Below the pieces are notes generated by a model, which made no database searches, was not told the origin of the DNA, and worked only from the letters and a program-made list of their open reading frames with translations. From contig CP136069.1 in assembly GCA_032622095.1 (NCBI GenBank), positions 127,677,450 to 127,741,449 on the forward strand: 64,000 nt of DNA, written 5' to 3'. The stretch is from Siphonodentalium dalli (taxonomy: Eukaryota; Mollusca; Scaphopoda; Gadilida; Siphonodentaliidae). Both the position numbers and the translations under genes were made by a program. Positions 8,940-48,976 of this stretch are shown here, piece after piece (within the stretch, counting starts at the first letter, position 1; every line of letters begins with the position of its first letter).

Positions 8940-9046
8940 ATCACTCTATGGAGAACAAAATCCCTGTGTTGTGGTCTGCACCGGAAACGTTGCTCAATGA
9001 CGTATTCTCCGAGGAAACTGATCGGTACATGTGTGGAATTCTGATG
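8940..9046 (+). CDS. Kinase domain 1, APE-motif exon
   Basis: Acceptor ttttccacag, donor atg|gtaagt; entering phase 1, leaving phase 0. It encodes about 35 residues including PVLWSAPETLL and FSEETDRYMCGILM. These match kinase subdomains VIII-IX: W.APE at the end of the activation loop and the helix-F Asp of the 'SDVWSFG' block, here TDRYMCG. The APE Glu and helix-F Asp are kept, so the C-lobe fold is probably intact. Catalytic status cannot be judged because the HRD and DFG exons are not in view. The next exon continues directly with YEVM. Confidence 0.85.
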
Positions 9047-9543
9047 GTAAGTACAGATTATTTATTATATTTTAATAAACGTTTTATGTCAGAACCATAT
9101 CGCTACTCCCTCCCAGAAGCCTGGACGTGTAGTTACGTTGTCAAGGTGCTATGATACTCTGCTGCATCGTGATGTAGTATGTTTGCATTATTCAGTATCA
9201 TTTGTGAAATTAATCATGATCGATTTTGTTACGTTTCAGGGAATCAAAATACGTTAAATATATTTATCCGGACTTTATATGCCATACAAAGATCGATCAT
9301 ATAATTAGCATTGTTTGGATTGATTATCTATATGGACGAGGTCGGTTATGGCTAATTTAAACCTTGAATTGTGTTTATGTAATTTGAAAGGGTGAAATCG
9401 ATACGGTATGTTAATAAATACACGAATTGTCCATCTACAGTTCTCATAAACTGTGCAACAAAGTCATAGCTAGCTCACGGCTGTGTTAAAGGTTTGCCCC
9501 ACACTGTAATGAGACAAATGCTCTTTATTTGAATCATATCGGG

Positions 9544-9674
9544 TCATAATTCTAGTAGTGTCTCCTCGTGGGGTTGTTATAAATAAGAGATGGAGTGACA
9601 TATAGCACAGAAACATAACTATGCATTCCCTGTCTCCAACAACCCCACGACGGGACACGACTAAAATTATGCAG
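9544..9674. repeat. Inverted repeat / MITE-like hairpin
   Basis: 'ctcctcgtggggttgtt' and 'aacaaccccacgacgggaca' lie in arms of about 33 bp that begin 'ataattcta' and end 'aattat', around a loop of about 60 bp. Intronic. Confidence 0.75.
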
Positions 9675-10159
9675 CATAATATTGCTTGCTTTGTCACGAT
9701 ATTGTTATTTGATATTTTGTCCACCGATGATACCGTCATTTTGGAGACGGCAAATATATAACAGGCTTACAGCCGAATACACTTCCATAATATTCAAAAG
9801 GAACATGGTAGCATGTATTACTAATATATGATATTGTAACTTATATTCTGACTGGGAGTATATAGTATTTTCGTATAAATGTGAATGATTGGATATTGAG
9901 ATAAATGCCAATTCAAGATCTCTTCCAACAAATCTTATCTTGCAGTATATGCCACATGAAAGCAGACACACAATCTCACGACAGATGAATAGATAAATCA
10001 AAGAACAACATATTTTAGGTACCAGTAGGATTTCTCACGTAAAATGCATGTTATGCCATTAGCCTCTTTGGCAATTCGTCACTGAATAGCCCTCTTATCA
10101 CTATCCAGTTCACTACCACCATCGCATTCTGGGCTAAACAAAGCAGGTTCTAGCCAAAA

Positions 10160-10690
10160 CATGTTCTTTTAATTTTTTATTTTGGCTGAGGGCAATCTCA
10201 ATATGCATTCCGATCGATACATGGTCATTTCGATAATAAATATGAATTCGTTCATTGAAGCCCATGCCTCCAATATTTCTGATATATACAAGTTCCAAAA
10301 ACAACCGATTCGTATGGTCCATTCCCAAATTACAAGCTGAAGTATTCATACAGTGACAAAATTCACAACATTGCAAGTCAAACAAGGCCCGTAGCTCTGG
10401 TAAAAATGAATAGACGAAACCTGAGTAGGTATCTTTCCCGTCGAGCTGTGCTACCACCATCGCAAAACGCAACTGAATCCGATGATTCTTACCCGAGTTA
10501 CAAGCTCAAATGTTCTTTTGGACACAAAATTCACAAATTTCCAAGTGAAAAAAGGCCGCCACTCTGGTAAAATGAGTGAACGAAAACGAACGTAGTATGT
10601 GGTATCCTTTCCCCAACCCGTGCTATCGGCATACCAAAGGACAACGAAATCACATAATTAACAGCTGAGTTACAAGCTGAAATGTTCGGG
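10160..10690. repeat. Degenerate ~170-bp tandem repeat
   Basis: 'ttacaagct' followed by 'caaaattcaca' and 'ctctggtaaaa' recurs at about 10330, 10498 and 10669. Two to three diverged units lie inside intron 1. The minus-strand ORFs of 63-112 codons are repeat shadows. Confidence 0.6.
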
Positions 10691-12639
10691 CGAACAGCTG
10701 AACTGCGGACGGACGGAGCCATCTGTTATTTGCCCGAACCTTCTTAGGGGTCGAGGCATAACAAAAGTGACTTTGTGTCAAAACTGTAAAGGCTACCCGA
10801 TGTTAATATACAGCTTCCAACTTTGAATCTAATTCAATTTCATAGAACACCATAACTATATGCATGCGAGTATGACCAAATACCCAACTTCTTGAGTAGC
10901 GATGTACACAATTTACCGGAACATGTCTATTTCGGATACTCGCATATCATTCTGGTTGTTGTTCTATACATTAACACCATCTGGTTATTGAACGCTATTT
11001 AGTGAATATTGTGTAAGCAAATTATAGTAGCATAGCTTCTTATAATTCTTTCCTCTTCAACTCTGTGAACTCAAATTCATGCATGAAATTATCAACCACC
11101 AACACTCAAAATCATGATATTCACACATGCACTATAATCGTTCCTGCCATACCACTAATGTCTGTTCTTTTCTCTGTATTTAGATGTATATGCATATATT
11201 TATGTTTTGATGGCGAGGAGGTTCATGTAACATTTAAGGATTTTGTATATTGTCTTATTTGTGCATTATTTGAATTATATGATCAGATCTGAGATGCGAT
11301 ACACTATAATGTTCTAGTACCTGTCTCACAATATAATGTGAATGTTATAGCATCACACAATGTTGGTAGTTTTGATCTATATATTAGCATAATCACTACT
11401 TGCTATTGAATATGTATAAGCCGGATCACACCCCTCGACCAGTCAAATCGCACCAACCCATGAACAACAGTTAGCTAAAACTCACCTAGAAATTGACATT
11501 AATTGGCGAGTAAGGCGGACAATCCAGGCAATATATACAGGTTTGATCTTTATTCGTGCATGGCATGCCAATGAAATTTCAACACAATCTTCCTGTAATG
11601 TGGAATAGTTTCACTCCGCGAGAATGTTCTAAAACTACCGGGACATTGCCTCATGGGCCCTGAGCGATAATTCCATAATGACAACCAAAACGAAAATAAC
11701 CGTAATATCCGCAACAATTTATTATCACAAGGAAGAATCTGTTTTATCCAGAAACACGTCGTCAGTATAAAGCAACTTCAAAATGGTTGATCAAAGTTGA
11801 TAAATTATACAAATTCAAGTGCTCCGACGGTCAAGGATCAAGTGATACGTTCATCGGGAATATGTAACATCACAAAACATTCAATTAAACTTTGATTGAT
11901 GGTAGGTGATAGGTAACAATCGTCGTATTGAAAATGGCTCAATTCCGTTTTCCTCTGGGTGTGAATCGGTTTATAGATATGTTATAACCCATTTGGTTAC
12001 CTGCACAAGAAATGGAGAAATTTGTTCACCCCTCCGTGCTTGCCTTGAGTGCTGATTGAAATGCTACGCTGAGGAGTCATTTAAGCATACAGATGCTGGT
12101 AAATTAATTCAGAAATTGCCATTAAATAAATAAACAAAGGGTAAACAAACATATCTCTTTCAAAAAGGTGGTAAGTGTTTTCTCCTGATTTGAGCCTAAT
12201 TGACAGTATAAGCCCTTTAATAGCCGCACCCGCCATGCCAAATTGATTGTATTCTTGTTGTAAAACGTTGTTATATATATTCTGCTTGTGGAGGCGAATG
12301 TTCTTCTAAGTTATAAGAAGCAGACATAATTGTCCAAGTCTGAAAACTCCATTTTCACACCTATCCAAAATTTCCAACTCATACTTTGAAATATAATACC
12401 CTATGGTTGGAAGTTTCCAATTTATTGCCATTTCAGTCAAAACAAATTGACAGAAACAAAGGAAATTTTCGGCTTTTGATCTACAATCAACACACTTCAC
12501 ACCACTAAATATAACTTCTTTTGGTCTGAACTTTCCAATTAATGTTTTTGACCAACGTTTGGGGGCGATACACTGTTATGTTACTACCATAGTATCACTG
12601 CGATGTAAAATCTAACATAGTTTTATGTGTGCCTGCCAG

Positions 12640-12714
12640 TATGAAGTGATGCATCTTGGACTTTGGCCATTCACAGAGCTGAATAGATTGGGCACAGAGA
12701 AAATGTGGGAATTG
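12640..12714 (+). CDS. Kinase domain 1, helix F-G exon
   Basis: Acceptor gcctgccag, donor gaattg|gtgagt; phase 0 on both sides, 25 codons. It reads YEVMHLGLWPFTE then NRLGTEKMWEL. Placed after ...DRYMCGILM it gives the classic 'GvlLyEvm.lG..Pf.' stretch after subdomain IX. It is too short to call alone. The exact phase fit and the continuous kinase pattern across both junctions are the evidence. Confidence 0.85.
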
Positions 12715-13916
12715 GTGAGTAAATTTGCAACATAAACAATGATACCATGGTATAATTGTCCTAAATGCTGACAGCGGTCTCCCATTTGGACTATGTAAAT
12801 TTAGAAACTAATAGTTGACGAATTACTCTGCAAAATGCAATCACTAACATTGTTGTTGCAATTAACACTGCGCTTAGTGAGTGTCCATATTACTCCCAAA
12901 TGTTTAGACATTTGATTTGCATGGGTATGACAAGGTCAATTGGTCACAGTCGCATGTTTGGTAAGGCTCTCGTGCACGTAAATGATCGGTACGTGATCAA
13001 CCCAAGTACGTGGTGTGCTATTGTGCTCCAATTTCCATTCAATTTAAATTCCTTCACTACACACTACCCACATTGTCATTATTCACAGGGTGGATTAGGT
13101 TTGAGATAGAAAATACCTGCGACAAATTGCATAGGAATGGGACTCATATATGCAGAAAATCCAGAACCATTAGGGGAACTTATTTATTTTGAAGTGTTTA
13201 TAATGCCGCATCTGTACGTTTCCATTCTCTCGAACATGATAACTTGTCTAATTAGTCCAGATTTAAATTCTGGTCAATTTACTACATGATCTAATTAACG
13301 TTATTTACAATTCACAGTTCAATACATATTATAAACGTACATACATACAAACTATAAATATGTTGATCATATCAGATAAGATCATAATACTCTAGACTTT
13401 ACATACATGCAAGAAGGAATTTAACTCTTATGTCAATGGTGCATGGGTGGGCGGGGTACTTAAATCTGTTTCCACAGTCTTGTATGTACGAACTGAATGG
13501 CGATGTAGTTTCTATTATCAAAAAGCAGTTTGTCATTGATTAACCTATCCCCCTGATATCGACAAATCATCATTGAGATATTATTCTGTTTTGTTTTTAG
13601 TTTTCTGAAAGGCAAGTCCAGCTCACGTGAAATGGCCATTACTTGCTGTTTAAGTCCCAGTTGGCTAAAGAAAATTCTTCGATATTCAGAAATTCGATTT
13701 GATTGACAACCTAATCTAATCGATGAGCAAGGAGTATTTAGAATGCGTTGATATACATATTCGCATGATGGTGTAGATGTATTTGTTGCTGCATGTACTC
13801 AATAACCGTACGATACCTAGAACTATCTTTTTCCTCCGAAGACGTCCTTGTGTAATTGTCCCATGTGCGCAAGCCTACATGTACACACTATTATATCATC
13901 GGTTGTTTCAATGCAG
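12715..13916 (+). other. Intron 2 (1.2 kb)
   Basis: Starts gtgagt and ends caatgcag. AT-rich; no further exon recognised. Confidence 0.7.
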
Positions 13917-14046
13917 ATCTTGTTTCACAACCACAAGCCAATGAGACACCCTTGCATACCAGCTGAAGTATATGATATCATACTTGATTGCTTGAAGAAA
14001 ACGCCAGGAGAGCGAAGTAGTCTGGACGACGTAGAGAGTAGATTGG
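13917..14046 (+). CDS. Kinase domain 1, C-terminal end
   Basis: Acceptor gtttcaatgcag, donor ttgg|gtgagt; enters phase 0 and leaves phase 1. It encodes HPCIPAEVYDIILDCLKKTP and then GERSSLDDVESRLG. This is the last helical part of tyrosine-kinase-like domains, pattern 'cp.elYdlm..C...p..RPsf..v...L'. The conserved Arg is kept (GERSS) but the following Pro is Ser. It completes domain 1; what follows is linker. Confidence 0.88.
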
Positions 14047-15720
14047 GTGAGTGGAAGATACTATTAGTTAACCCGCAGTACGGTGTTTGACCTACCCGAA
14101 GCCAGTCGTATCGCATGAGGCCGAATTGGATAGAGCTGTGTGGGGATAGGTAAAAACCTGTACTACGTGAACAGACTCGCTTATATATTGACATTAACAG
14201 TGAACTCAAATCAACATGTCCCTTCTTTCCAACCCATAGAAATGAATAGGGAAATTTGAACCTAACATTCCAGTATTTGTTCATTTTGTAGTACATAAAG
14301 AATATACTAAAATTCATGTACTGCTTGAAATATTTACCATAACACCAGATTACACCATTATTAACTGAACACAAATTGAATTGTCAAGTATTAACAAATA
14401 ATGATATCACACTCATTCCTCCCCTTTCACAAATACATAATATGAAAAAAAAAATTCCCAGAAATATCACGAGGTTTACTCCCGCGTTGTGACTTAAGCG
14501 ACAATATTATATCCCGCAAACGAGGCAGCCATACGATACGGAAAAAAATTATGTGTGGTTCCCAGAAATATCATGGGGTTTCGATGTTGACCACACAATA
14601 CGGGTTTATATTGTGTATCTATCGACAATCAAGTTCATGATAACACCCTAGTCAATAGGTAAGAAACGATATCTGCATCAACAATCTACACAATACATAC
14701 TTCGTGTAGCATGACATTTTATTACTTACCGAAGTATATAACTCACTTCGTCCTACCAATGCCAGTGGGTCGCATCCACCGTGAGTATTCCCTTTTACAC
14801 TCTGACGCATAGGCAAGCATTCTGATCTTAAATACCTTAAATACCTTCAATATTAATGTTCTTCTCTGAGAACCCATATCACTATATATACTGTCTTCTG
14901 TACATATTAGTGTAATATATTCAATATCTCCATAGAAGGAGGCAATAAAGATATATTATACTTCTAAAAACAATGTCCTATCTGATTTTGCACAAAGTGT
15001 TTCATTCCATAACCAAATTCCATGCCAGCCACTCTGGCATTTTGAAGGAGCGCTTGGTTTTTGAAAGTAGTAGGATTCGAATGCCATATATTCTGAAAAC
15101 TGATGATGTGTGATTACTAAACTTTGCTCCCCATTTAGGATATATGTACAGATATTCAATAAATTCGTCTCACAAACATATATACATATATGATGGTATG
15201 AGCTCATTACTCTCAGTCAAGTGGAATTCTCGTGGCGTTGTGAAAAATAGCATAAAATACAATGGCTTAGATCTTGAAAAACTCTGTATGAAACTGTATA
15301 TGGTATAATTGTTAGCAAGTCTGATTCCCGTTATTCCATTTGCAACCAAGTCTCATATTGGAACATCGCATTTATGTTGACCGTCTTAACGTTGAAGCCG
15401 AAAACGTAACTAATCGTTGTGTGAGCACATTCGATAACCCATTGCTGACATTTCCAGGTGGTTGCGTTTCGTATATGCATTCTTGTCTCCAAACATACAT
15501 ATTGTCGTAATAGCATGCTGTTTAGAGTTAAGCAATGCATATATTTTTGTCAGGCATATAATTTGAAAACTCTCGCACACATTCAGTGATGATCTCAGTA
15601 TAAAGTGGAACTCATTGCCAACTCATTGTTTACGAATGAGACACATCCTCTGTCAACGTGAATATTTCAACCAATTTACCTCAGTTAAGCCGCTGTGATG
15701 TAGGTTGAACATTTTTTCAG
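14047..15720 (+). other. Intron 3 (1.7 kb)
   Basis: Starts gtgagt and ends acattttttcag. It has a diverged direct repeat 'cccagaaatatca' at about 14457 and 14560. No other exon seen. Confidence 0.7.
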
Positions 15721-15812
15721 CCAAAGTTGCCATCGCTCGACACAGTGCAGCAAGAGACGTTACCTACCCAGAATTATCATCAACGCAGACAGAGATGAAA
15801 TTGCCAGAAATG
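15721..15812 (+). CDS. Inter-kinase linker exon 1
   Basis: Acceptor acattttttcag, donor gaaatg|gtaaga; enters phase 1 and leaves phase 0. The only frame open throughout that fits the preceding phase gives about 30 residues, including DVTYPELSSTQTEM. It is polar, without a domain, and contains one Tyr motif (TYPEL) that could be a phosphorylation site; that role is inference. Confidence 0.7.
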
Positions 15813-16651
15813 GTAAGATGAATTGTATGCCACTGGCTGCTGGTTTCCCCAAGGATATTGGGAACTAGATGTGGTGGCATAAAATAACAGTTGATAAAAA
15901 CAAATAGTTCATTCAGCTTCAAGTTTATATAGGATACCCGTACTCTATTGAATTTGATATTCGGTGATTTGAGCAGGAATAGTTTGTGTGCGAGTCGACT
16001 TGTCGTTTAGTGTACATGGATGTTTATCTCAATTGTAATTCGATTGACCATCACAATTAAAAGAAAATGCACGAAAGACACGTGTGAGATGAGATATTCT
16101 TCCTTCAGTGATCAAATCGCTGTGCAATTCCCATGGAGTTAATTAGAACACCATCAGAACAACTTACCGTTGACCGTATATACAGTTAATAACGTTCCGG
16201 TTGACTCGATTACGCGATGCCTAGCATCACAATAACGAATTTTACGTGCGTTGTTAACGACACCGTGCTCCGTTGAAATTGTTTTCGCCGATCAGCGGGC
16301 GATGTTGGTGAATCTAAATATAAAGTTAGCAGCTCTCGGCCAATCAGAATTCGTATTTCAGAGACAAATATTCAACTTGAATTACACTATTCGTCGAGCA
16401 ACTGGAGGAGTAACATTGTTGTCATAATATAATTGGCATGGAATTAGGAGCGTTGGCGACTGTTAAATTCAGTCACTCAGCTTGAAATAAGTTTCACGTT
16501 GCTCATGACTACTCACAACTAAAATATTCTTGAATTTCTACTGTGACTTGCAGAAAAAGACAACAAACCATAACGACAAAAACATAGGAAATATCTAATG
16601 ATTCCATCTATAACCTCGTATGTTATGGCTATTTCCTCTTTTTCGTTGTAG
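15813..16651 (+). other. Intron 4 (0.84 kb)
   Basis: Starts gtaaga and ends cctctttttcgttgtag. No repeat of note. Confidence 0.6.
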
Positions 16652-16691
16652 ACGCTGCCAGATTATTTCAAGAAATTCAAATCTTCTGATA
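16652..16691 (+). CDS. Inter-kinase linker exon 2 (40-bp micro-exon)
   Basis: A pyrimidine-rich acceptor (tcctctttttcgttgtag) is followed by 13 codons, TLPDYFKKFKSSD, plus one base before gtaaat. It enters phase 0 and leaves phase 1, exactly what is needed to join the flanking exons, whose phases do not match without it. Too short for a domain call. Confidence 0.6.
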
Positions 16692-17586
16692 GTAAATATT
16701 CATAATTACTGATTTTGACAGGAAATATTTGCAACAAACACACTGCACTGCGTAGCTTATTAACACAACCTGGGTATGCGCTCAGTTTACCATCTGAAAT
16801 AGTGAATGTCTGCGAGAACATAAATAAAACATTTTTCATTACATATTTTAGTTTTTGGTAGCCATTTGCAGAACTAATTGTTTTTGTCGCGCGAAGGACC
16901 AAAAACAACACAAAACAACAGCCATAGTATTCAACCACGTTTGCAATAATCTGACAGATATAAGCACTCAATACTGATTCATCTTTTCAGACATTATGTT
17001 ATTTTATGGTGACTTTTTGTCCAAAAAATAGTTCTGCCAATGGCCGCCGAGAAACTAAACTATGCACCGAAAATGTGTTATTTATATTCTACAAACATTC
17101 ATGATTTAAGATAGTAAACGGAGCGCATACCACAGTTGGGTTCACAAGCTACACAATTCAGTGCGTTTGTTGCAAATATTTCCCGTCAAACTCCCCAGTG
17201 ACCAGCCTTGAACATTGTTGTTTTTATTTTGTTTGAACCACTTTTTTACATTATTAGAACGTATCTCTCATATGGTGAGGATGGGATTAAAAGTTGTTGT
17301 TATAGTACTATAACATACATTGGTTGTAAAGGATAATGATTGTTTCCTTCAAATTGAAAATTTGAAATTGAGATATTTTGAAAATCACGAATGGGGCGCG
17401 TTCTTAACTGCTATAGAATTTCGATGATTCTAATAGTTTGAAAATGTAGCTTTGCTATGGAAGAGTTTAATTTGCCATGCATGGCTTCCCGTGCTGAAAC
17501 AAGCCATTACTGCGATGCCATCGATTTGCTGACATAGTTTTCGACAACAAAGCCTCTGACTGACAATATGAACAATTCTATTGCAG
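16692..17586 (+). other. Intron 5 (0.9 kb)
   Basis: Starts gtaaat and ends ttctattgcag. No gene or strong repeat seen. Confidence 0.55.
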
Positions 17587-17696
17587 ATCCCGAAGACCAG
17601 TACTACAACACCAAATTGTACAAGCGTACAATAAGAAACGACGTAGCCATGAAATATCAAGATATATCCTGGCAATCTCCAACATATAAATATGAG
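17587..17696 (+). CDS. Linker to kinase domain 2 N-lobe exon
   Basis: Acceptor tctattgcag, donor tatgag|gtggga; enters phase 1 and leaves phase 0. The matching frame is the only one open to the end and encodes about 37 residues, including PEDQYYNTKLYKR and DISWQSPTYKYE. It is Tyr-rich (five Tyr). The end may be the first strand of domain 2, because the next exon opens with YGEVVV, a degenerate glycine-loop region. Confidence 0.7.
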
Positions 17697-18449
17697 GTGG
17701 GACCTTAGTCGTCTTTTTGAGATTTGTTTTCCATAATTACTATTCGTTTTCTGGCACGTGAAAGTTTTAAAACATTTACATTAGTGTTGACGAAAATGGA
17801 TATTGGTTCTTGTTTATGCAACCAAATCCTGCAAACATTTTGACTGATTGGGGTCTGTATTATCCACACGTTTCTTGTCGGAGTTTCTACCTTTGATATG
17901 TCAGTGTGTCGACGATATATGTCAGGTCCTTCATATGAAGAAACGGGATGAGATGCAGCGATGACATGGTAGTGTTTAGATTACGGATAAGTAAATAACG
18001 AAACAAATTCGTCTGAAGCCAATGGTATTCTGGCTGTGACCATTTCGTGATCATCGCTGCTTAGCCTTATGCAACATAGCGGCAGGATACAGCAAAAGAG
18101 TACAGTTAAGAAACATATTTTATAACACAGTGGTCTTATCCATTACAACGTGTCCTCATTCTTTTAATCTGATGCAGCAAGGCAGCCGCTCCCTTATACC
18201 AAATCCTAGCTGCATGATGGCTAATATATTCATTAATAAAACAATTCAATAATGAACACTGAACAAGTATTATGGACTCAAACTTAACAACCCTCTCATC
18301 AATAAATTGGTTATCCCATCAGTCATACACGTATGACTGGTGATGATATATTATTCCTCGGGAGGAACGAGGAGACAAAGGTGCATAATGCTTATACTCA
18401 TGTGTGGGACATATTAAGATAATCAGTTCAACAAATGGCCTGAACTTAT

Positions 18450-18790
18450 TATCGAAACATTTTCTACGGGAACTACTCGCTAATCAGCATTTAGTAAATA
18501 CTGCAGACCACATTCTTGAACACCTTTAACCCTTTATATACTAAATACTCATTGACGAGAAGTTCCAATAGGACATATTGAGGTAATGAGGTCATCAATC
18601 GACAATAGGTCGATTCATGAACTGTCCCACCAATGAATATGAATCAATCTGTTCTTGTATTATCTGTGTTACTGTCTTTCGTCTTGTATTACTTTAACAT
18701 TCCTCTAAATGAGTAATTTAGACCATTCCAATGTATTCTGCTATAACTGAATGGGAGAATCCATTTAATATAAACATGTTTAAAAAAGCT
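18450..18790. repeat. Dispersed AT-rich repeat family, copy A
   Basis: Shares 'gaccattccaatgta', 'gggagaatccatttaatata', 'ctgttcttgtattat' and 'actcattgacgag' with sequences at 19185-19440, about 32070-32130 and 41195-41480. Non-coding. Confidence 0.55.
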
Positions 18791-20372: not shown

Positions 20373-20513
20373 TATGGCGAAGTCGTTGTCACAGAAGATG
20401 TCAGCCGGGAGTTCAAGGAGATATCTGAGCCAACAATAAGAAGCGCTAAAATTGAAGGAGTTAACTCAAATTCGATTAAATTAATAGATCCGAATAGTAT
20501 GAAAAGTAAACTG
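20373..20513 (+). CDS. Kinase domain 2, N-lobe exon
   Basis: Acceptor gtgttttcag, donor aaactg|gtgagt; phase 0 both sides, 47 codons. YGEVVVTED sits where the glycine loop and beta3 should be. There is no GxGxxG and no VAIK-type Lys. REFKEISEPTIRS fits helix C. NSNSIKLIDPNSMKSKL followed in the next exon by VYRCM aligns with the beta4-beta5 pattern 'hpNIvkLig....plylVyEyM'. The short, Lys-less N-lobe points to a pseudokinase. Confidence 0.78.
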
Positions 20514-20992: not shown

Positions 20993-23919
20993 TGCGTATA
21001 TTTTCACTATGTGGTCAGTAAGATTCTTTCGTGTATTTTCACTATGCAGTTGGTAGGATTCTTTCATGTATTTTCACTATGCGGACAGTAGGATTCTTTC
21101 GTGTATTTTCACTTTGCAGTCGGTAGGATTCATTCGTGTATTTTCACTATGCGGTCGGTATGATTCTTTCGTGTATTTTCACTATGCGGTTGTTATGATT
21201 CTTTCGTGTATTTTCACTATGCGGTGGTAAGAATTCTTTCATGAATTTTCACTATACAGTTGGTAGGATTCTTTCGTGTATTTTTACTATGCAGTCGGTA
21301 GGATTCTTTTATGTATTTTCACTATGCGGCTGGTAGGATTCTTTCGTGTATTTTCACTATACGGTCGGTAGTATTATTTCGTGTATTTTCACTATACGGT
21401 CGGTAGAATTATTTCGTGTATTTTCACTCTGTGGTCGGTATAATGTTTTGTGTATTTTCAATATACGGTCGGAATGACTCTTTCGGGTATTTCACTATCG
21501 GGTCGGTATGATTATTTCGTGTATTTCACTATGCTGACAGGATTCTTTCATGTATTTTCACTATGAAGTCGGTAGGATTCTTTCATGTATTTTCAATATG
21601 AATTCGGTATGATTCTTTCGTGTATATTCACGTTGCGGTTGGTATGATTCTTTCATGAATTTTCACTATACAGTTGGTAGGATTCTTTCGTGTATTTTCA
21701 CTATTCGGTCGGTAGGATTCTTTCATGTATTTCCACTATGCGGTGGGTATAATTCTTTCATGAATTTTCACTATACAGTTGGTAGGATTCTTTCATGTAT
21801 TTTCACTATGCGGACAGTAGGATTCTTTCGTGTATTTTCACTTTGCAGTCGGTAGGCTTCATTCGTGTATTTTCACTATGCGGTCGGTATGATTCTTTTG
21901 TGTATTTTCACTATGCGGTTGTTATGATTCTTTCGTCTATTTTCACTATGCGGTGGATATAATTCTTTCATGAATTTTCACTATACAGTTGGTTGGATTC
22001 TTTCGTGTATTTTTGCTATTCAGTCGGTAGGATTCTTTCGTGTATTTTCACTATGTGGTCAGTAGAATTCTTTCGTGTGTGTATTTTCAATATACGGTCG
22101 GAAGGACTCTTTCGTGTATTTCACTATGTGGTCGGTATGATTATTTCATGTATTTTCAATATACGGTCGGAAGGACTTTTTCGTGTATTTTCACTAGGCG
22201 ATCGGTATGATTCTTTCGTGTAATTTCACTACGCGGTTGGTAGGATTCTTCGTGTATTTTCACTGTGTGGTCAGTAGGATTCTTTCGTGTATTTTTACTA
22301 TGCGGTCGGTAGGATTCTTTCATGTAATTTTACTATGCGGTCGGTATGATTCTTTTGTGTATTTTCACTATGCGGTCGTTACGATTCTTTCGTGAATTTT
22401 CACTGTACTGTTCGTAGGATTCTTTCGTGTATTTTCATTTTGGGGTCCGTAGGATTCTTTCTTGTATTTTCATTATACGGTCGGTAGGATTCTTTTGTGT
22501 ATTTTCGCTATGCGGTCGGTAGGATTCTTTCGTGTATTTTCACTATGCAGTCGGTAGGATTCTTTCTTGTATTTTCACTATGCAGTCGGTAGGATTCTTT
22601 CTTGTATTTTCACTATGCAGTCGGTAGGATTCTTTCTTGTATTTTCATTAGGCGATCGGTATGATTCTTTCGTGTAATTTCACTACGCGGTTGGTAGGAT
22701 TCTTCGTGTATTTTCACTATGTGGTCAGTAGGATTCTTTCGTGTATTTTTACTATGCGGTCGGTAGGATTCTTTCATGTAATTTTACTATGCGGTCGGTA
22801 TGATTCTTTTGTGTATTTTCACTATGCGGTCGGTAGGATTCTTTCGTGTATTTTCACTATGCAGTCGGTAGGATTCTTTCTTGTATTTTCACTATGCAGT
22901 CGGTAGGATTCTTTCTTGTATTTTCACTATGCAGTCGGTAGGATTCTTTCTTGTATTTTCATTAGGCGATCGGTATGATTCTTTCGTGTAATTTCACTAC
23001 GCGGTTGGTAGGATTCTTCGTGTATTTTCACTGTGTGGTCAGTAGGATTCTTTTGTGTATTTTTACTATGCGGTCGGTAGGATTCTTTCATGTAATTTTA
23101 CTATGCGGTCGGTATGATTCTTTTGTGTACTTTCACTATGCGGTCGGTAGGATTCTTTCGTGTATTTTCACTATGCAGTCGGTAGGATTCTTTCTTGTAT
23201 TTTCACTATGCAGTCGGTAGGATTCTTTCTTGTATTTTCATTATACAGTCGGTACGATTCTTTCGTGAATTTTCACTTTGGGGTTCGTAGGATTCTTTCT
23301 TGTATTTTCACTATGCAGTCGGTAGGATTCTTTCTTGTATTTTCATTATACAGTCGGTACGATTCTTTCGTGAATTTTCACTTTGGGGTCCGTAGGATTC
23401 TTTCGTGTATTTTCACTTTGGGGTCCGTAGGATTCTTTCGTGTATTTTCATTATACGGTCGGTAGGATTCTTTCGTGTATTTTCACTATACAGTCGGTAG
23501 GATTTTTTCGTGTATTTTCATTATACGGTCGGTAGGATTCTTTCGTGCATTTTCACTATACGGTCGGTAGGATTCTTTCGTGTATTTTCACTATACGGTC
23601 GGTAGGATTCTTTCGTCTATTTTCATTATACGGTCGGTAGGATTCTTTCGTGTATTTTCATTATACGGTCGGTAGGATTCTTTCGTGTATTTTCACTATG
23701 CGGTCGGTAGGATTCTTTCGTGTATTTTCACTATGCAGTCGGTAGGATTCTTTCGTGTATTTTCATTATACGGTCGGTAGGATTCTTTCGTGTATTTTCA
23801 TTATACGGTCGGTAGGATTCTTTCGTGTATTTTCACTATACGGTCGGTAGGATTCTTTCGTGTATTTTCACTATGCGGTCGGTAGGATTCTTTCGTGTAT
23901 TTTCACTATGCGGTCGGTA
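20993..23919. repeat. 35-bp minisatellite, ~84 units
   Basis: The unit is close to ggattctttcgtgtatttt plus cactatgcggtcggta, 35 bp. About 84 copies cover 2.9 kb inside intron 7. Early units are diverged; the last ~15 (23400-23919) are nearly identical. A higher-order repeat exists: the block at 22661-22974 recurs at 22975 (314 bp, nine units with one 1-bp deletion) and partly at 22207. Because 35 is not a multiple of 3, each frame reads a 35-residue periodic peptide, giving spurious ORFs up to 101 codons. Confidence 0.97.
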
Positions 23920-24149: not shown

Positions 24150-24235
24150 TCCACCAAAACAATCCATATACAGTACCGATGAGGCGATGGTCGGAAACCA
24201 GGAAACTCAATGCTTAGAATTTATGTTATTTATTA

Positions 24236-26090: not shown

Positions 26091-26123
26091 GTGATTATAT
26101 ATATAGTTGGTCGTCTGTTGCAG

Positions 26124-26309
26124 GTGTACCGATGCATGGCGTCAATACCACTGCTCGAATATGCCAAGAAATGTGGTACATACCAAATGTATCCGAAGCT
26201 CATCAAATGCTTCCATAACCTAGCTGTAGAGTTGAATAAACTACAAGAACAAGGCTGGTGTCACGGAAATATCCGACCTGACTACATTCATTTCGATGAA
26301 ACGACATAG
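26124..26309 (+). CDS. Kinase domain 2, catalytic-loop exon ending in TAG
   Basis: Acceptor tctgttgcag; phase 0; 61 sense codons then TAG at 26307-26309, immediately followed by a good donor (gtagcg). VYRCMASIPLLEYAKK is beta5 and helix D. CFHNLAVELNKLQEQGWC is helix E. HGNIRPDYIHFDE is the catalytic loop, corresponding to HRDLAARNILV.E. The catalytic Asp is Asn and the metal-binding Asn is Tyr, so it is pseudokinase-like. The TAG is in frame and would end translation before the DFG-equivalent. If the donor is used, the mature mRNA still contains the stop. A CAG-to-TAG change at a CAG|GT junction would explain it (inference). Confidence 0.82.
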   Translation: MYRCMASIPLLEYAKKCGTYQMYPKLIKCFHNLAVELNKLQEQGWCHGNIRPDYIHFDETT

Positions 26310-27805
26310 GTAGCGTACCCAGACTTTAACACGTGCTCGCATCCTGCATTGTAAACGTATACCTGAACATCCCTTATATTATATTCACCCGATAATACAA
26401 AACTGGTGGTAGTTCTGATCATTTACGGATGAGGATGGTGGGAAATAAACACAAAAAGGCTTATAAAACGTATCTTTACCACAGCTAACTACGTTGGAAG
26501 TAAGACCTATGTAGTTCAACCAGCAATGTTACATAAATTTGCCTGTAATAGCATGCATATATCGTACAAGAATCAATCTTACATGTATTTGAAGGCAGAT
26601 GTTAGTCTCATTTGATTTAAGCATATTTGAATAGTATAATAATATACAGAGACTGGGGGCTGGAGGACACGTTCTTGAAACTTAGATGCCGCCAATCGCC
26701 ACAATACCAAATATGTATAACAACGTATATCAACAAAATATCAATATGATTGGTTTGGCATGTTAGTCTCATATCGTTAGTTTAGGTAAATATGTATTTT
26801 GTAGGCATGTGGTCGTTCATTGTCTGGCACGATATGGTTTTCTGTGATGAAATGTCTGCACAAATACCTGGCAAATTTACCAGTGTGTGGAAGTATACTA
26901 AACCAACAGGGGCCAGCAGTATCATGTCATTCAATTATGTTCTAACTCGCTTCGATCAAACGAACATAGAAGATTTACTCAATAAAAACTACAAAATAGA
27001 TTTGATATGTTTTATTAAAAAGACTACTCAGGCGTGCGGAATACCAACATCGGCAGAACATAAATCATTATAATTAATAATAAATAACATATGAAAATTA
27101 CAATACAATAATTTCAACTATATATCAGCGATCGAAATGAATAAGGAGAAACTGTGGTTGTGAACCTGAGCGTAGAATGATAATTGTCTTTACGACCTTG
27201 ACCAAAGCGAAGCAGACAGATGATTGAACATGGATAGCACGGGGTGAGTGAACTGCTAGCTGGCGTTCATTGTCCGTGACCAATCTATCAGAACGCCATC
27301 TGACCTACATATCAATAACACTGGAGACCCTTAACCTGCCAAATCTTTTTAACAGTTGAACTTCAATAAATACATCTGTAGTCAGTTGAAGAGGATGGCT
27401 CTATGTGTATCGTTACACAAAGTCCTGAGCCTCAATTAATTTGAGACAATCGATCAGAATTTATTCAGGAATGCTGTGACTCCACCCTGTTGTTATTTTC
27501 AAAAATACACGGATAGATTGAATCCTGGAGTTCATGGCATTCAAATACGTAGTGAAAATTTCCCTTTCCCTTCACAGTGAACCAAATAATGGCCAAACAA
27601 AAGACAGCAGTAAGACCCATACTCATTATCGTTCTATTTTACCAATAGCACAGAATATAGAATATAGATGAGTTATTCTTTGTTATATAAATCTAATTGA
27701 TAGCGATTTTCATTGAGCGGGGAGGACAATGATGGTAGCCACATATATAATCGTATGAATTACATTGAGAGCATGCATGTGTGTATAAGCTAATTATCTC
27801 AACAG
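26310..27805 (+). other. Intron 8 (1.5 kb)
   Basis: Starts gtagcg and ends atctcaacag. A 93-codon ORF at 26792-27073 shows no kinase motif and no paired splice sites. Nothing else noted. Confidence 0.6.
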
Positions 27806-27894
27806 GTAGTTGTATTAACCAGAATGGGAAGAATGTTGAAGATGTCACCAGACATGGTTGTCAAAGGAAATGGGAACACAGACTCCTGGCCGTG
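27806..27894 (+). CDS. Kinase domain 2, DFG-equivalent exon (RMG)
   Basis: Acceptor attatctcaacag, donor cgtg|gtatgt; enters phase 0 and leaves phase 2. VVVLTRMGRM aligns with 'VKIADFGLA', so DFG is replaced by RMG and the Mg-binding Asp is lost. The exon ends TDSWP plus TG, and the next exon's first base makes Trp, giving PWDPPEVI, the P+1/APE region. An overlapping frame is also open, but only this one meets both flanking phases and the kinase alignment. Confidence 0.8.
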
Positions 27895-28090
27895 GTATGT
27901 GCTGATTTGTATTTCTACATTCCACCCGCTTACCCCCCCCCCCCCCGGATCACTATTTTGGCATATACCAAGTAGTGCAATATCTATATAATACTCTATT
28001 TAAGAAATGGTACTTTAGTACACTCACTAATATGAAGGTGTCACCACTACCCCGTACATCCTGAATAATGGGGTGAAGAAAATATCGAGT

Positions 28091-28720
28091 CATGGTTATT
28101 TGACACTAATATTATCAAATAACTTTCAAGCATTTGCTGAAGTGATGACGGTAATGTTCATAACTTCAACACATCAAGATGCATGAGACTGAATTACATA
28201 ACAATTGTCATTTTGACTAAGAAATAATCAGAATATAAAAAAAAGTTATGCTACAACATCTGCATACCATCATTTTTGATGAGTCCTGGATACCATTTTT
28301 ATATATAATGAGGCATGGCTATTTCACACTAATATGACAATGTTTCAACCATTTGCTGAAGTAATGTCCATAAAGTCAATACATCAAGATGTATGAGACC
28401 CAATTACATCAATTGTGTATCAATGGCTAAGAAATAACCAAAATATAAACAAGAGTTGATGCTATAAAATGTGCGCAACAGAATTTGTGTTGAATCCTGA
28501 ATGCCGCTTATATAAAATACTAGTCATGGTTATTTTACGTTAATATCATAATTTTCAGTCATTTCCTGAAGTAACGTCCATAACGTCAATACATCAACGT
28601 GTATGAGTTTAAATTACATCAACATGTATGAGTTTAAATTATATCAACATTTGTTATTTTGGCTTAGAAAGAATCAAGATATGAACAATTTGGTGCTATA
28701 AAAGCTGCGTACCATTTTGT
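28091..28720. repeat. ~215-bp tandem repeat, three diverged units
   Basis: 'catgg.tattt.ac' starts units at 28091, 28314 and 28525 (periods 223 and 211). Each continues with 'atttgctgaagt', 'acatcaa.atg.atgag' and 'gaatcctga'. The third runs straight into the 60-bp minisatellite, whose first bases resemble the unit's end. Confidence 0.8.
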
Positions 28721-29029
28721 TGAATCCTGAATATCGGTTAAATGGGCATATGAATCCTTAGTGCCAGTCAACACAGGGCATGAATCCTGAATACCGGTTA
28801 AATGGGCATATGAATCCTTAGTGCCAGTCAACACAGGGCATGAATCCTGAATGCCGGTTAAATGGGCATATGAATCCTTAGTGCCAGTCAACACAGGGCA
28901 TGAATCCTGGATATCGGTTAAATGGGCATATGAATCCTTAGTGCCAGTCAACACAGGGCATGAATCCTGAATACCGGTTAAATGGGCATATGAATCCTTA
29001 GTGCCAGTCAACACAGGGCATGAATCCTG
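28721..29029. repeat. 60-bp minisatellite, 5.2 units
   Basis: Units start 'tgaatcctga' at 28721, 28781, 28841, 28901 and 28961, with a partial sixth at 29021. Each 60-bp unit is two diverged 30-bp halves, both starting 'tgaatcct'. On the minus strand it is open as a 20-residue repeat (LTGTKDSYAH then LTGIQDSCPV), giving a 116-codon ORF without start context or splice support. Confidence 0.95.
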
Positions 29030-29343
29030 TACATCACTTCAAGATAATCCAAAACTCGTGTACCAGAAAGGGAGGGGGTATAGCACCATCACACATGTGA
29101 CCCAAAAAATGAAACCTGCACAGGGCCGGCTTGGAACGTTACTTCAGATTCACAAATCGAAATTTAAATGTTCAGCTAGAACTAATTAATTAAAAATAAC
29201 TCTGCGACCTACATTTTAAATTTATTAAAAAAAAATATTTTGTCAACTCGCGGAGAATCTCTATCTTCGTACACACTGTGTATGTTAATGCTGTTTTTCG
29301 TTGGTTTAATATGTCAGAATCCCGATGAAATTCATCGTTTCAG

Positions 29344-29512
29344 GGACCCACCAGAAGTGATTCAGTCGGCTCTGTATTCGCATGGAAGCGATGTATACCA
29401 ATATGGAAAGACAGGATGGCAATTGTTCACTGCAGCAAACCTCTTCAGCAATAACCAAACGGCGAACGAGCTTAAGTGTGTCCCTCAAAACACATGCTCA
29501 AACAAACAACAG
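29344..29512 (+). CDS. Kinase domain 2, APE to helix G exon
   Basis: Acceptor ttcatcgtttcag, donor caacag|gtttgt; enters phase 2 and leaves phase 0. After a completed Trp codon it reads DPPEVIQSALYSHGSDVYQY, then GKTGWQLFTA. This is subdomains VIII-IX of tyrosine kinases, with PPE for APE and SDVYQYGKTGWQLFT for SDVYSFGVLLWELFT. The helix-F Asp and the WxLFT block are kept. The following NNQTANELKCVPQNTCSNKQQ-like stretch is an unusually long polar insert before helix G. An alternative acceptor at 29317 is also in frame but gives the wrong phase for the upstream exon. Confidence 0.88.
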
Positions 29513-31152
29513 GTTTGTGCATGTACTTTCCATCTTACTAGCATACTAGCATACCGGTACAACACATTACAATATATATATATTCTACCGGAATACGGAA
29601 CAGTTGTGGCCCAGGAGTGACAGAGATTCTCAGATTCACACCAAGATTTCCCAGTTATTTACCCATAATGAATTATAATTCACAACTAAGATATAGAGTT
29701 ATTCCCCTTCCGTTGAGAATAATAGACTGACAGTACAGACCAGATAGAAATTAAGCACATAACACACGTCAGTACTTTGACAAACACAACATGTTCAGTT
29801 TATTCCACCGGATATATTGATACATGTAATACAATATTTTGGATATTCCTCTTTAAAATGGTATAATATGTTGCATATAATGTGATCGTTGAATTCGAAT
29901 ATTAAGTGAGCCTTTAAATCCATGGTTTAAAGCTACTGACGGCCTTTTACTTTGAAAAATCATACATAGTTTGTTAAACCATTATTATCAAGGAGAAAAT
30001 GAAAAAAAATGAGAAAGAATTAGCTCTTATTTTTATTATAAATCATCATCGAATGACGAAATTCCATATGCTTTGATAGGTATTCTCTATCTGAAAACTT
30101 ATTCATCTCGTGAATAATGGCCACGTATGAGCGTTCCACTTGAATGACCAACTAAATTACTGAATGTTCGTTTTCAAAAATCAAAGCTAAACAGTTAGAG
30201 CACAATAGCACAAGGGTTAGTAACATAAACATCAGAAGGTTAAAGGTACGGTTGGCCTTGGCGGTGGGTATACTATGAAAATATTTCCACCCGTCAAAAA
30301 CAGCCACAAACAGAAAGAACAACAAAATGTAGACATACTTTGTCCGTATACAAATAAGAAATATCGCATAAACAGTATGTTATTGTCATATATTTGACCA
30401 TTGTTATGTAAACAAAAGCATAAAAAGTTACTTTTCTGGTGTTTGTTTACATTATGATGGTAAACATAAAGAGCGTTCTTTGTTGGTGAATTCCTGATAT
30501 GGATCGAATAAAGAGCGTTTATGCTATTTGTGTGTGATTAGCCAGCAGCATTGTGCTGTCTTCTGTGACACAATCAGGCTCTTGTTTAGGTAAAATATAG
30601 TAAATCTTTATGATAACATGCTGTTTACGCGATGGTCATGGTATATATGAACGAAACTGTATGCGTTTTAATGTTTTTATGTTTACGGTGATTGGAACAA
30701 ATATGAATATTTTGGACAACTAAGGCCTCACGTGCCTTTAAGTTTAAATGACTATCCATGTTGCCACACCAAAGTTCGCATACCCTTCATGATTGTTGAA
30801 TAAACTCACCTTGCCAGACAAATGCAAATTCCATGTCAACAAGCTTAGGATTGAAATGGGCACTTGGTAAGAAAATTATTTGGTGACTTTAACAAGAGGG
30901 TGAATTATTTTGCAGTTTGAATTTGACATTTGCCTCATAGAATGGCGTTCATTGAAGCATAACTCCAAACAAATATTTACCTTTAACATAGTTAATCAAA
31001 CTGACAATAAATGTTATATGTGGGCAATGTCATAGCAATTGCATCCATGACTTATTGGCAGATACGGGTCAGTGATTTTGGGGACTATTCTTTTTTTGAA
31101 TATATATACATATATATCACATCGTTCTACAATATAGTACCAAACGTTACAG
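29513..31152 (+). other. Intron 10 (1.6 kb)
   Basis: Starts gtttgt and ends caaacgttacag. AT-rich, no gene recognised. Confidence 0.65.
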
Positions 31153-31307
31153 GTATTGGACCAGCTTTTGACGGACTCCATCACAGACTATCTACCGAAG
31201 CCATTTGGATGCCCGGACTCACTATACGACGTCATACGTCAGTGCTGTGCGAAAGATAGCGTAGACAGGCCAACATTTAGTTCCGTGATACAGGCATTAG
31301 CTAAAAT
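31153..31307 (+). CDS. Kinase domain 2, C-terminal end
   Basis: Acceptor aacgttacag, donor aaaat|gtaaga; enters phase 0 and leaves phase 2. It encodes VLDQLLTDSITDYLPKPFGC and then PDSLYDVIRQCCAKDSVDRP, TFSSVIQALAKM. This is the end of a tyrosine-kinase-type C-lobe, pattern 'cP..LY.vm..CW..d...RPtF..i...L', with CC for CW and an intact RPTF. It is the clearest family signature in the gene. Confidence 0.92.
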
Positions 31308-32164
31308 GTAAGATATTTCATATCTAAGATGTATATAAGGTTCCGAACTTCAAGTTACAACAGCAACACAATATATCTGTTTCACCGTTTGCTTACAATG
31401 CGAAATCATATGTCGTATACATTATTCCTTTTAACAGGAACGTGATTGGGGGGTAATTGTTGGGGTGTTTAACTTTAATTTTCTTGAAAACCTGAAGACC
31501 AAAATTCACAACTCTGACAAACGCTCTTTGCATCATCTGTCTCTCTTCAGTTGGAAATTTAGAACCGATACCTTAATTGGTGGGACAATTCTAATCTAAA
31601 ATACTCTAAGATTGAACATTTTTCTCAATTGATAGTAGAATCAGTCAGAAAGTATGCAATTAGGAGGTTAATTCAATCTAGGGTTAAAACAGATTGTCTG
31701 ATTCTGAACATTGTTCGAATAACTAAATTACCATAATAATTTAATCATATTTTCGGTCTGAAATTTCTAAGAATATTTTCCAATTGTTTTGACAATTGAA
31801 ATTGGCGGGTGTACACATCACCACCCATATATATATCGAGATTTATTATTATTAAAAATGTTGATGCTAGAAGATTCTGTAATCAAATTAATCTAATCAA
31901 ACTCATCCAATAGTAGTTTCCTTTGGAAAGAAATTGTAAAATAAGAAGTTTCAACCTGTACTTTTTTTTCTTACAACTAAATACAAACCCTTCCCGCTCT
32001 TGTGTTATGTTATCTGATCTGCTCATATGATGCCTGCTTGTATTTATCGAAAATTCAACTAGAATAATACCATTCCAATGCAATTGTATACTTGTTTTCA
32101 ACTGTGTGGAAGAATCCATTTAGCAAACAAGTGGTTAGTTTGTCATTGACTTCCTTCGTTTCAG
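31308..32164 (+). other. Intron 11 (0.86 kb)
   Basis: Starts gtaaga and ends cttcgtttcag. The end (about 32070-32130) has a fragment of the dispersed repeat seen at 18450 and 19185. Confidence 0.6.
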
Positions 32165-33215
32165 TGTTGAATTAGAACTGCCGGGCAGGGAGGAAGATGA
32201 CGACGACCAGAATGGCATTGACACAGCAATTGTCAATCCAGTAGTATATCCAACCAGTTCTCGCCATCGTCATTCAAATTTGCTAAGCGAGGTGCGAATG
32301 TGCGGAAACAAAGTGGTTAATGACTTTGAAAACAGAGAACCAGTTTATGGTGTCGATAGGGCTATTTACGGTAGTCATTCTTCTACAACTAATGCGTCGA
32401 CGACCAACCTGCACACATCGCAATTTACGCTATCGGACGACCACTATCCCTATATGGTGCCATTACCTAATGAACAGCGAGACATATCAACACCAGGGAA
32501 GGGTATATTGAAACGAAACCTAGCTTTCTTGGAAGATCAATACGCCATGTCTCATAGTTTGGAACCGCATCGTCATCAAGGCGGGAGAATCGCTGCACGT
32601 GCTATCGAAGGTGATGATACTGTGCATTATTTACCAGCAGAAAGCATTGTAAATGAACGCGACACCTTGGAGTATGAACAAGTCTCGCCTGCACACTTAT
32701 ATGAAAGTTCTTCCTCGAGCTCAATGCCGTCACGAGGAAGTTTGTTCTCCAGGCTCATGAGAAAAATAGGCTTGAAGAAGAAGAAGGAGAGAAACGAATA
32801 TGCATTTGATAATACTGTTCGATACTCGAGTCGTTCAATTGGCACCATATCACTAAATTCCAATTCATGTTATGAAACAATACAAGGAGCTATGTCACGG
32901 TCCGCAATAGCTACCACCCGAGAGAGTGGCAACAACCAGGCAGTACCTGGATATAACCAACCAACGGTTCCACCGCAACTTCCCCCTCGGCTCAGTGACG
33001 ACCAGCCTTTTCTGATGGGAGTGCGATTTCCGGGCGACGAACTTCCTGTTGATTATGACGTCGACGAATCCACCGAAGGGGAAGGAGACAACGGAATCAA
33101 CTCCAGCAACCTTGACGACATATTGTATGGAGCCAATCCCACATCGCTCATTCAGCAAACGCAGAGCTTCTCAACCCTTTACAGACATTCCGATAATTAT
33201 GATCCCCTGTATTGA
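32165..33215 (+). CDS. Terminal exon: Tyr-rich, SH3-ligand-bearing tail
   Basis: Acceptor cttcgtttcag; enters phase 2; 349 codons to TGA at 33213-33215. After the kinase fold (IVELELPGREEDDDD) the chain is low-complexity and polar. Tyr sites in possible docking contexts include NPVVYP, EPVYG, AIYG, LEYEQV, NEYAF, DILYGANP and the C-terminal NYDPLY. PPQLPPRL (about 32970-32993) contains a class II SH3 pattern PxxPxR. A Ser-rich stretch precedes a polybasic patch (LMRKIGLKKKKER) that could bind membrane lipids. Together these suggest an adaptor-like scaffold tail; phosphorylation is inference. Confidence 0.9.
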
Positions 33216-48969: not shown

Positions 48970-48976
48970 TAGTACA

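What the first reader, a model, noticed from the sequence alone, without database searches (positions are those of the whole stretch)
8940..33215. Gene with two kinase-like domains in tandem and a Tyr-rich scaffold tail
Twelve exons join without any phase conflict. Domain 1 keeps APE and the C-lobe signature. Domain 2 has a complete tyrosine-kinase-like outline. A tail of about 350 residues has many Tyr motifs, a PxxPxR site and a polybasic patch. JAKs also have tandem kinase folds but end at the second domain, and their C-terminal domain is the active one. Here the C-terminal domain looks dead. I know no named family with this layout.
Basis: partly seen in the sequence, partly recalled or inferred. 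Interest (0 to 1): 0.75.

Follow-up and report, generated by a model that had tools for sequence, protein, structure and literature searches.

The report
Animal double-pseudokinase scaffold gene family
This animal gene, one of three full-length relatives found in its genome, joins two tyrosine-kinase-shaped domains that both look catalytically dead to an unknown front end and a long tail, so it probably works as a signalling scaffold rather than an enzyme, and this copy carries a premature stop.

Summary
The exon chain is real, but cut by the window. The gene starts about 14 kb upstream: 13 coding exons, 10 in the window, with matching phases and GT-AG introns. Layout: unidentified N-terminal domain, helical-looking region, kinase-like domain 1 (Pfam PK_Tyr_Ser-Thr, E 2e-30), kinase-like domain 2 (1.2e-17), and a single-exon tail of 349 residues. 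Two other full-length loci in the genome (C6:29.16-29.20 Mb; C9:53.32-53.36 Mb) have the same exon order and each ends in a long terminal exon. Domains 1 and 2 form separate, fully supported groups, so the tandem predates these duplications. This argues against chance and against two separate genes.

Domain 2 lacks both catalytic Asps. The window copy has an in-frame TAG ending the HGN exon. The tail's Tyr motifs do not exceed shuffles. It fails the JAK features I could test. Best reading: a cytosolic double-pseudokinase scaffold. I found no description in print, but animal protein databases were not available.

The parts
8940..9046 (+). E4: domain 1 activation-segment end and start of aF (IPVLWSAPE..DRYMCGILM). 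The gene's first three coding exons lie upstream of the window and cannot be entered here: E1 C9:127663495-127664395 (start codon, N-terminal domain, linker), E2 C9:127668619-127669274 (helical-looking region), E3 C9:127672126-127672960 (domain 1 N-lobe, catalytic loop HRDIMACRF, KLSDFQ)
   Evidence: E4: GT-AG, phase; paralogues E 8.7e-9 and 5.7e-8. E1-E3; paralogue matches E 7e-21 and 7.7e-15 (E1), 2.5e-17 and 4.6e-26 (E2), 2.6e-48 and 1.7e-19 (E3)
12640..12714 (+). E5: domain 1 aF-aG (YEVMHLGLWPFTEL)
   Evidence: Best phase-0/0 candidate in 9047-13916, score 8.6 against 2.0 for the next; paralogues E 1.4e-5 and 1.2e-4
13917..14046 (+). E6: domain 1 aH-aI (AEVYDIILDC..ER); donor GTGAGT; the unspliced frame would stop at about 14090
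   Evidence: paralogues E 1.4e-12 and 2.5e-5
15721..15812 (+). E7: inter-domain linker into domain 2 (YPELSSTQTEMKLPE)
   Evidence: Best phase-2/0 candidate in 14050-20372; the next three are the same exon with other acceptors. Paralogue C6 E 1.6e-4; C9:53 only 0.92, accepted by place and phase
20373..20513 (+). E8: domain 2 reduced N-lobe (VVVTE where VAxK would be expected, by eye; aC, b4)
   Evidence: paralogues E 8e-9 and 3e-5
26124..26309 (+). E10: domain 2 hinge, aD-aE and catalytic loop HGNIRPDYIHF; last codon is the in-frame TAG at 26307-26309. No exon between E8 and E10 was found; the label E9 is left unused
   Evidence: paralogues E 1.6e-12 and 5e-8
27806..27894 (+). E11: domain 2 DFG region (VVLTRMG, Asp replaced by Arg) and activation segment
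   Evidence: Only phase-0/2 candidate listed in 26305-29343; paralogues E 2.2e-8 and 0.047
29344..29512 (+). E12: domain 2 PPE, SDVYQYG, aF and insert
   Evidence: paralogues E 2.1e-16 and 3.4e-12
31153..31307 (+). E13: domain 2 aH-aI (CPDSLYDVIRQCC..DRPTF)
   Evidence: paralogues C9:53 E 3.5e-8 and C6 6.9e-4 in the whole-genome search; my query was in a wrong frame
32165..33215 (+). E14: terminal tail exon, 349 codons plus stop; Tyr residues, PQLPPR, KKKK patch, C-terminal NYDPLY
   Evidence: ORF, phase-1 acceptor and chance of openness about 1.4e-9; long terminal exons in both full paralogues

Best explanation
The gene belongs to a family (three full-length members found in this genome) of large, probably cytosolic proteins: an unidentified N-terminal domain, a helical-looking region, two tandem tyrosine-kinase-type domains that both lack key catalytic residues, and a long disordered-looking tail. 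It most likely works as a scaffold or switch: the N-terminal part places the protein at a partner or receptor, the pseudokinase pair holds partners and changes shape on binding (nucleotide or a partner kinase), and the tail is phosphorylated by another kinase to recruit SH2/SH3 adaptors. SHOWN by sequence: tandem order in three loci, loss of catalytic residues in 3 of 3 members, and a long terminal exon in 3 of 3. INFERRED: a single spliced transcript, cytosolic location, scaffold function, tail phosphorylation. The window copy itself carries an in-frame stop soon after the domain 2 catalytic loop, so as assembled it would give at most a product ending there.
For: 13 exons with matching phases and GT-AG introns. 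The 12 non-tail exons have counterparts, in order, in two other loci, one of them (E7 in C9:53) by place and phase only; each locus ends in a long terminal exon reached by a phase-1 acceptor. Domain 1: PF07714 2e-30, 3 of 3 members; domain 2: 1.2e-17, 3 of 3 members. Invariant across three members: domain 1 Asn at the aC Glu place, Arg for the HRDxxxxN Asn, no DFG Gly; domain 2 Asn for the HRD Asp, Tyr for the Asn, Arg for the DFG Asp. The domain 1 and domain 2 sets are each one side of a branch (100/99 and 100/100). The start Met context is alike in three members, with no signal peptide by eye. The C6 tail has six YxN motifs against a shuffle mean of 2.4 (19 of 1000, uncorrected), but five of them lie in one repeated stretch, so they are not independent.
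Against: No RNA, protein or structure data. In the window tail, Tyr and PxxP motifs are not above shuffles, and the C9:53 tail has only 18 Tyr in 717 residues. The window tail does not match the other two, so a shared tail function is unproven. Domain 1 keeps the HRD Asp and the DFG Asp in 3 of 3, so residual activity is not excluded. The N-terminal domain has no identified fold. The in-frame TAG could mean that this copy does nothing.
Confidence: 0.5

Rival explanations
1. Reverse JAK: domain 1 is an atypical but active kinase, and domain 2 is its regulatory pseudokinase.
For: Domain 1 keeps the HRD Asp and DFG Asp in 3 of 3 members; the window copy also has WSAPE and a good C-lobe.
Against: aC Glu, catalytic-loop Asn and DFG Gly are lost in 3 of 3, no Lys is invariant before aC, the HMM match begins only at profile position 51 of 258, and APE is ARE and PIE in the paralogues. 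The branch to the domain 1 set is long (1.02 changes per column).
Confidence: 0.17
2. The window copy is a null allele or young pseudogene (or carries an assembly error), while its paralogues work.
For: In-frame TAG at 26307-26309, in an exon with four introns downstream, where both full paralogues have a sense codon. The genome search found one copy of this exon at DNA level, so no second allele could be compared.
Against: No other lesion was found: the remaining 12 exons are open, introns are GT-AG, and the tail is open over 349 codons. A single-base error or polymorphism cannot be told apart without reads.
Confidence: 0.3
3. Two neighbouring genes wrongly joined: gene 1 ends after domain 1 and gene 2 holds domain 2 and the tail.
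For: The window's E6 frame would reach a stop at about 14090 if not spliced. The E7 match in the C9:53 locus is weak (E 0.92).
Against: Same order in three loci; E6 donors have the same phase in all three, and E7 has the same outgoing phase in all three and the same incoming phase where the acceptor was fixed (window and C9:53); no separate start exon for domain 2 was seen.
Confidence: 0.05
4. A highly diverged JAK that lost catalytic activity and gained a tail.
For: Two TK-type folds in tandem; chain 7t6f_A, recalled to be full-length JAK1, is among the structures hit by the domain 2 profile (E 1.3e-13).
Against: Eph, Lyn and other TK chains score higher for domain 2, and Src-Abl ancestor, EGFR and ABL head the list for domain 1 (best 60 of 1447 and of 1075 seen). 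No FERM or SH2 match in the N-terminal exons scanned. The C-terminal domain is dead. The FERM_F2 search of the genome gave nothing but is uninformative, since no control rang either.
Confidence: 0.06

Closest known systems
Janus kinases (JAK)
   Same: Two tyrosine-kinase-type folds in tandem in one polypeptide; one is a pseudokinase with an HGN-type catalytic loop (HGN in JAK recalled, from no call)
   Different: No FERM or SH2 match; both domains lack catalytic residues; the C-terminal one is the more degenerate; a long tail follows it
Plant tandem kinase-pseudokinases (TKPs; Yr15/WTK1, RPG1; PMC6170490, passages read)
   Same: Tandem kinase-like domains, at least one degenerate; several copies in one genome
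   Different: Animal tyrosine-kinase-type domains; additional conserved N-terminal regions and a tail, whereas the 92 plant proteins had no additional conserved domains (PMC6170490)
PEAK pseudokinase scaffolds (PMC10279700, start of abstract seen in the search listing only; details recalled)
   Same: Tyrosine-kinase-like pseudokinase scaffold joined to long flexible segments with docking sites (recalled)
   Different: One pseudokinase domain, not two; flexible segment mostly N-terminal (recalled)
Single TK pseudokinases such as HER3 and PTK7/CCK4 (recalled)
   Same: Loss of catalytic residues in a TK fold; phosphotyrosine docking in HER3
   Different: Receptors with one kinase domain; here no signal peptide was seen by eye and there are two domains

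Membership tests
Protein tyrosine-kinase-like fold (Pfam PF07714) | Profile match over the curated cut-off (23.1 bits) in domain 1 | tested here: met
   106.4 bits for the window gene; 3 of 3 members match
Protein tyrosine-kinase-like fold (Pfam PF07714) | Profile match over the curated cut-off in domain 2 | tested here: met
   64.6 bits for the window gene, stop read as X; 3 of 3 members match
Active protein kinase | Domain 1: beta-3 Lys, aC Glu, HRD Asp with loop Asn, DFG | tested here: not met
   HRD Asp and DFG Asp kept 3 of 3; aC Glu, Asn and Gly lost 3 of 3; no Lys invariant before aC
Active protein kinase | Domain 2: the same set | tested here: not met
   HGN/HGN/HRN, Tyr for Asn, Arg for the DFG Asp in 3 of 3; no Lys at b3, assigned by eye
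JAK | FERM and SH2 domains N-terminal to the kinase pair | tested here: not met
   No FERM or SH2 hit in the window gene's E1, E2 and E3, nor in the N-terminal domain and E2 of the two paralogues; the paralogues' E1 linkers were not scanned
JAK | Active C-terminal kinase domain, protein ends there | tested here: not met
   Domain 2 degenerate; tail exons of 349, 717 and 832 codons follow
JAK | Phylogenetic grouping with JAK JH2/JH1 | not testable with these tools
   No animal sequence database; only PDB sequence ranking
Plant TKP family | Kinase plus pseudokinase in tandem with no other conserved domain, plant lineage | tested here: not met
   Both domains degenerate, extra conserved N-terminal regions; the assembly has animal receptor-type kinases such as ROR and DDR (names recalled from sequence)
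SEFIR/TIR N-terminal signalling domain | Profile similarity of E1 to SEFIR | tested here: not met
   hhalign of three E1 against three own-genome SEFIR: probability 1.2%; no Pfam TIR/SEFIR hit. TIR was tested only through Pfam; a distant fold relation is not excluded

The most novel reading that the evidence does not exclude
A previously undescribed animal gene family in which two tyrosine-kinase domains were placed in tandem independently of JAK and both then lost catalysis, giving a double-pseudokinase switch with a new type of N-terminal domain and a fast-evolving docking tail.
Probability: 0.4. Interest if true: 0.65.

Novelty: new variant of a known kind. Interest (0 to 1): 0.52.

Why it matters
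[quoted passage not shown] A second animal family with a tandem of TK folds, in which neither fold keeps a full catalytic set, gives an independent case for asking what the tandem does without catalysis: docking, dimerisation or allostery. It also adds an N-terminal domain with no recognised family.

Tried and rejected
SEFIR/TIR identity of the N-terminal domain: suggested by eye, not borne out by hhalign against SEFIR (probability 1.2%) nor by Pfam and PDB.

An additional exon (E9) between E8 and E10 for aC/b4: scanned in all phases, nothing convincing. The paralogues have only about 0.6-0.8 kb there and no obvious exon. Rejected; E8 itself carries aC and b4.

Conserved readthrough at the E10 stop: paralogue rows showed '1 TAG', but in both full paralogues that is the acceptor's own TAG upstream of the exon; they have sense codons at the exon end, as has the partial duplicate. 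Rejected.

Helical region: one weak PDB hit to a designed filament (E 0.00078), not taken as homology.

FERM_F2 search for a JAK in the genome: uninformative, no control rang.

Structure prediction was not attempted: its stated rule lists loci from other tools than the one that gave the upstream exons and paralogues.

Limits and errors of mine: the exon finder's training codons included the window's own tail exon. tblastn E-values are for the roughly 85 kb of loci I had fetched, not for the genome; minus-strand rows were dropped. In one search the E13 query was in a wrong frame (its rows not used; searches used instead). Searches translated E10 one base off (corrected). My first reading of the domain 2 DFG as 'PDM' was replaced after the alignments.

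Literature: seven searches listed no animal tandem TK pseudokinase other than JAK-related papers; of the 55 papers only 25 were listed. Passages of three papers were read by 'find'. The library holds open-licence papers only.
Full report
WHAT WAS CHECKED. The finding proposes a gene at 8940-33215 with two kinase-like domains and a tail. The window lies at C9:127677450-127741449 of a 2.23 Gb assembly of 9 contigs. The assembly has kinases that I recognise by sequence as ROR, Src, DDR and LIMK/TESK types (names recalled), so I take it to be an animal. The species could not be named.

THE GENE IS LONGER THAN THE FINDING. I fetched 60 kb upstream and searched it with own-genome kinases. tblastn found the missing half of domain 1 about 4.5 kb upstream of the window. 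A simple exon finder trained on 2739 codons, which included the window's tail exon, together with frame displays, gave 13 coding exons with GT-AG introns and matching phases. In window coordinates, negative meaning upstream, they are: E1 -13954..-13054, E2 -8830..-8175, E3 -5323..-4489, E4 8940..9046, E5 12640..12714, E6 13917..14046, E7 15721..15812, E8 20373..20513, E10 26124..26309, E11 27806..27894, E12 29344..29512, E13 31153..31307, E14 32165..33215. E3 has a second possible acceptor at -5299. E5, E7 and E11 were each the best candidate for the phase and interval needed: for E11 the only one listed, and for E7 the next three rows were the same exon with other acceptors. The label E9 is unused: I looked for an exon there and found none. 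The joined frame has 1529 codons and two stops: the terminal one, and one at codon 1041.

THE INTERNAL STOP. Exon E10, which carries HGNIRPDY, ends in TAG at 26307-26309, immediately before its GT donor. Both full paralogues have a sense codon at that place and their exon is open to the donor; so has the partial duplicate at C9:53.8 Mb. A DNA search of the assembly found only this one copy of the exon. Without reads I cannot tell a sequencing error, a polymorphism and a disabled gene apart. No other lesion was seen.

PARALOGUES. Searching the genome with the two halves of the protein and with the C9:53 Mb paralogue found two more full-length loci, C6:29160501-29200989 and C9:53317290-53357750, as well as a partial duplicate of the E5-E13 region at C9:53.81-53.83 Mb and a single E13 copy at C3:187.06 Mb. 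E1 and E2 were matched only in the three full loci; the kinase exons also match ordinary kinases, as expected. Exon by exon, tblastn E-values in the fetched loci run against C6 from 2.6e-48 (E3) to 1.6e-4 (E7), and against C9:53 from 4.6e-26 (E2) to 0.047 (E11) and 0.92 (E7), the last accepted by position and phase. E13 is not in these ranges; in the whole-genome search it gives 6.9e-4 (C6) and 3.5e-8 (C9:53). Phases agree at the borders I could define. The C6 E7 acceptor, the E1 donors and the E3 acceptors of the paralogues were not fixed with confidence. Each paralogue ends in one long terminal exon with a phase-1 acceptor, 832 residues in C6 and 717 in C9:53 after the acceptor. In one search the window tail had no match at E up to 1 in the loci held then, which covered all of the C6 tail and the first part of the C9:53 tail.

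ARE THE DOMAINS KINASES? Domain 1 (E3-E6) matches PK_Tyr_Ser-Thr at 2e-30 and domain 2 (E7-E13) at 1.2e-17; 3 of 3 members match for each. Against PDB sequences, the domain 1 profile finds the Src-Abl ancestor (6e-29), EGFR, ABL and BTK first (best 60 of 1447 seen). The domain 2 profile finds Eph receptors (1.4e-16), Src-Abl ancestor, EGFR and Lyn first, with 7t6f_A (recalled to be JAK1) lower at 1.3e-13 (best 60 of 1075 seen). Profile-profile comparison with three own-genome tyrosine kinases gives 99.8% and 99.4% probability.

ARE THEY ACTIVE? In domain 1, the HRD Asp and the DFG Asp are invariant in the three members, but the loop Asn is Arg, DFG is DFQ/DLR/DFR, and no Lys is invariant before aC. 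The aC Glu place holds an invariant Asn; this rests on extending the ungapped alignment by one column. In domain 2, HRD is HGN/HGN/HRN, the loop Asn is Tyr, and the DFG Asp is Arg (RMG/RLG/RLA). Where VAxK would be expected by eye there is VVVTE/LYVTE/VTVRE; that part lies outside the Pfam match, which starts at position 75 of 258, so the N-lobe looks shortened. By canonical criteria neither domain should be a normal kinase. Domain 1 is the less degenerate, and residual activity is not excluded.

AGE OF THE TANDEM. In a tree of 10 rows (three domain 1, three domain 2, ROR, MuSK-like, Src, LIMK-like), the domain 1 set and the domain 2 set are each one side of a branch with support 100/99 and 100/100. 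The two-domain arrangement is therefore older than the three genes. The tree is small and says nothing on kinship to JAK.

N-TERMINUS AND TAIL. The N-terminal 130 residues are conserved (38% and 25% identity) but match no Pfam family or PDB chain credibly. My first guess, SEFIR, was not borne out. The second region is conserved (26% and 31%) without a credible match; 'helical' is by eye. In the window tail, motif counts are within shuffles except for the basic run (15 of 1000). In the C6 tail YxN is raised (6 against 2.4; 19 of 1000), but five of the six are in one repeated stretch. Several patterns were tried on three tails, and no correction was made. The C9:53 tail has 18 Tyr in 717 residues. 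All three end with a Tyr near acidic residues (NYDPLY, IYEDVVYN, IYDSIEEHFV), seen by eye only.

MECHANISM. A scaffold or switch is the simplest reading of two degenerate kinase folds plus a long tail. The steps after 'one gene with two degenerate domains' are inference. I give this reading 0.5, reverse JAK 0.17, joined genes 0.05 and JAK 0.06; the state of the window copy (disabled or wrongly assembled, 0.3) is a separate question.

WHAT IS KNOWN. [quoted passage not shown] In the holozoan tyrosine kinome paper PMC8662651 the word 'tandem' does not occur in the main text (find). Seven library searches listed no animal double-pseudokinase of this type. This does not show absence, because animal protein databases and most subscription journals were not available.

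Noticed in passing
G000 C2:149.83-150.59 Mb (L013): 94 of the 147 kinase-profile matches lie in this stretch, mostly with equal or nearly equal scores, one open frame each, many 2.3-2.9 kb apart: an array of Ser/Thr kinase copies (one translated, TSSK-like by eye).
   Followed up: no
window 20995-23919: 35-bp minisatellite of about 84 copies inside the intron between E8 and E10 of the kinase gene.
   Followed up: no
window 48965-52766: Two long ORFs (918 and 346 aa) that look like a DIRS-type retroelement: reverse transcriptase and tyrosine recombinase (by eye).
   Followed up: no
window 55603-57686: 610-aa ORF resembling a non-LTR reverse transcriptase, followed by a shorter overlapping frame (by eye).
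   Followed up: no
L005, window coordinates -19482 to -18412: 357-aa open frame upstream of the gene that looks like a Harbinger-type transposase (by eye).
   Followed up: no
L007, L008, L009: ROR-like, MuSK/ROR-like and Src-like kinases whose kinase regions lie in single uninterrupted frames, possibly retrocopies or intron loss; the MuSK-like one occurs twice, about 0.3 Mb apart.
   Followed up: no
G000 C9:53.81-53.83 Mb (L038): Partial duplicate of E5-E13 of the C9:53.3 Mb paralogue, without E1-E4 matches at E 0.01; possibly a segmental duplication or an assembly duplicate.
   Followed up: partly
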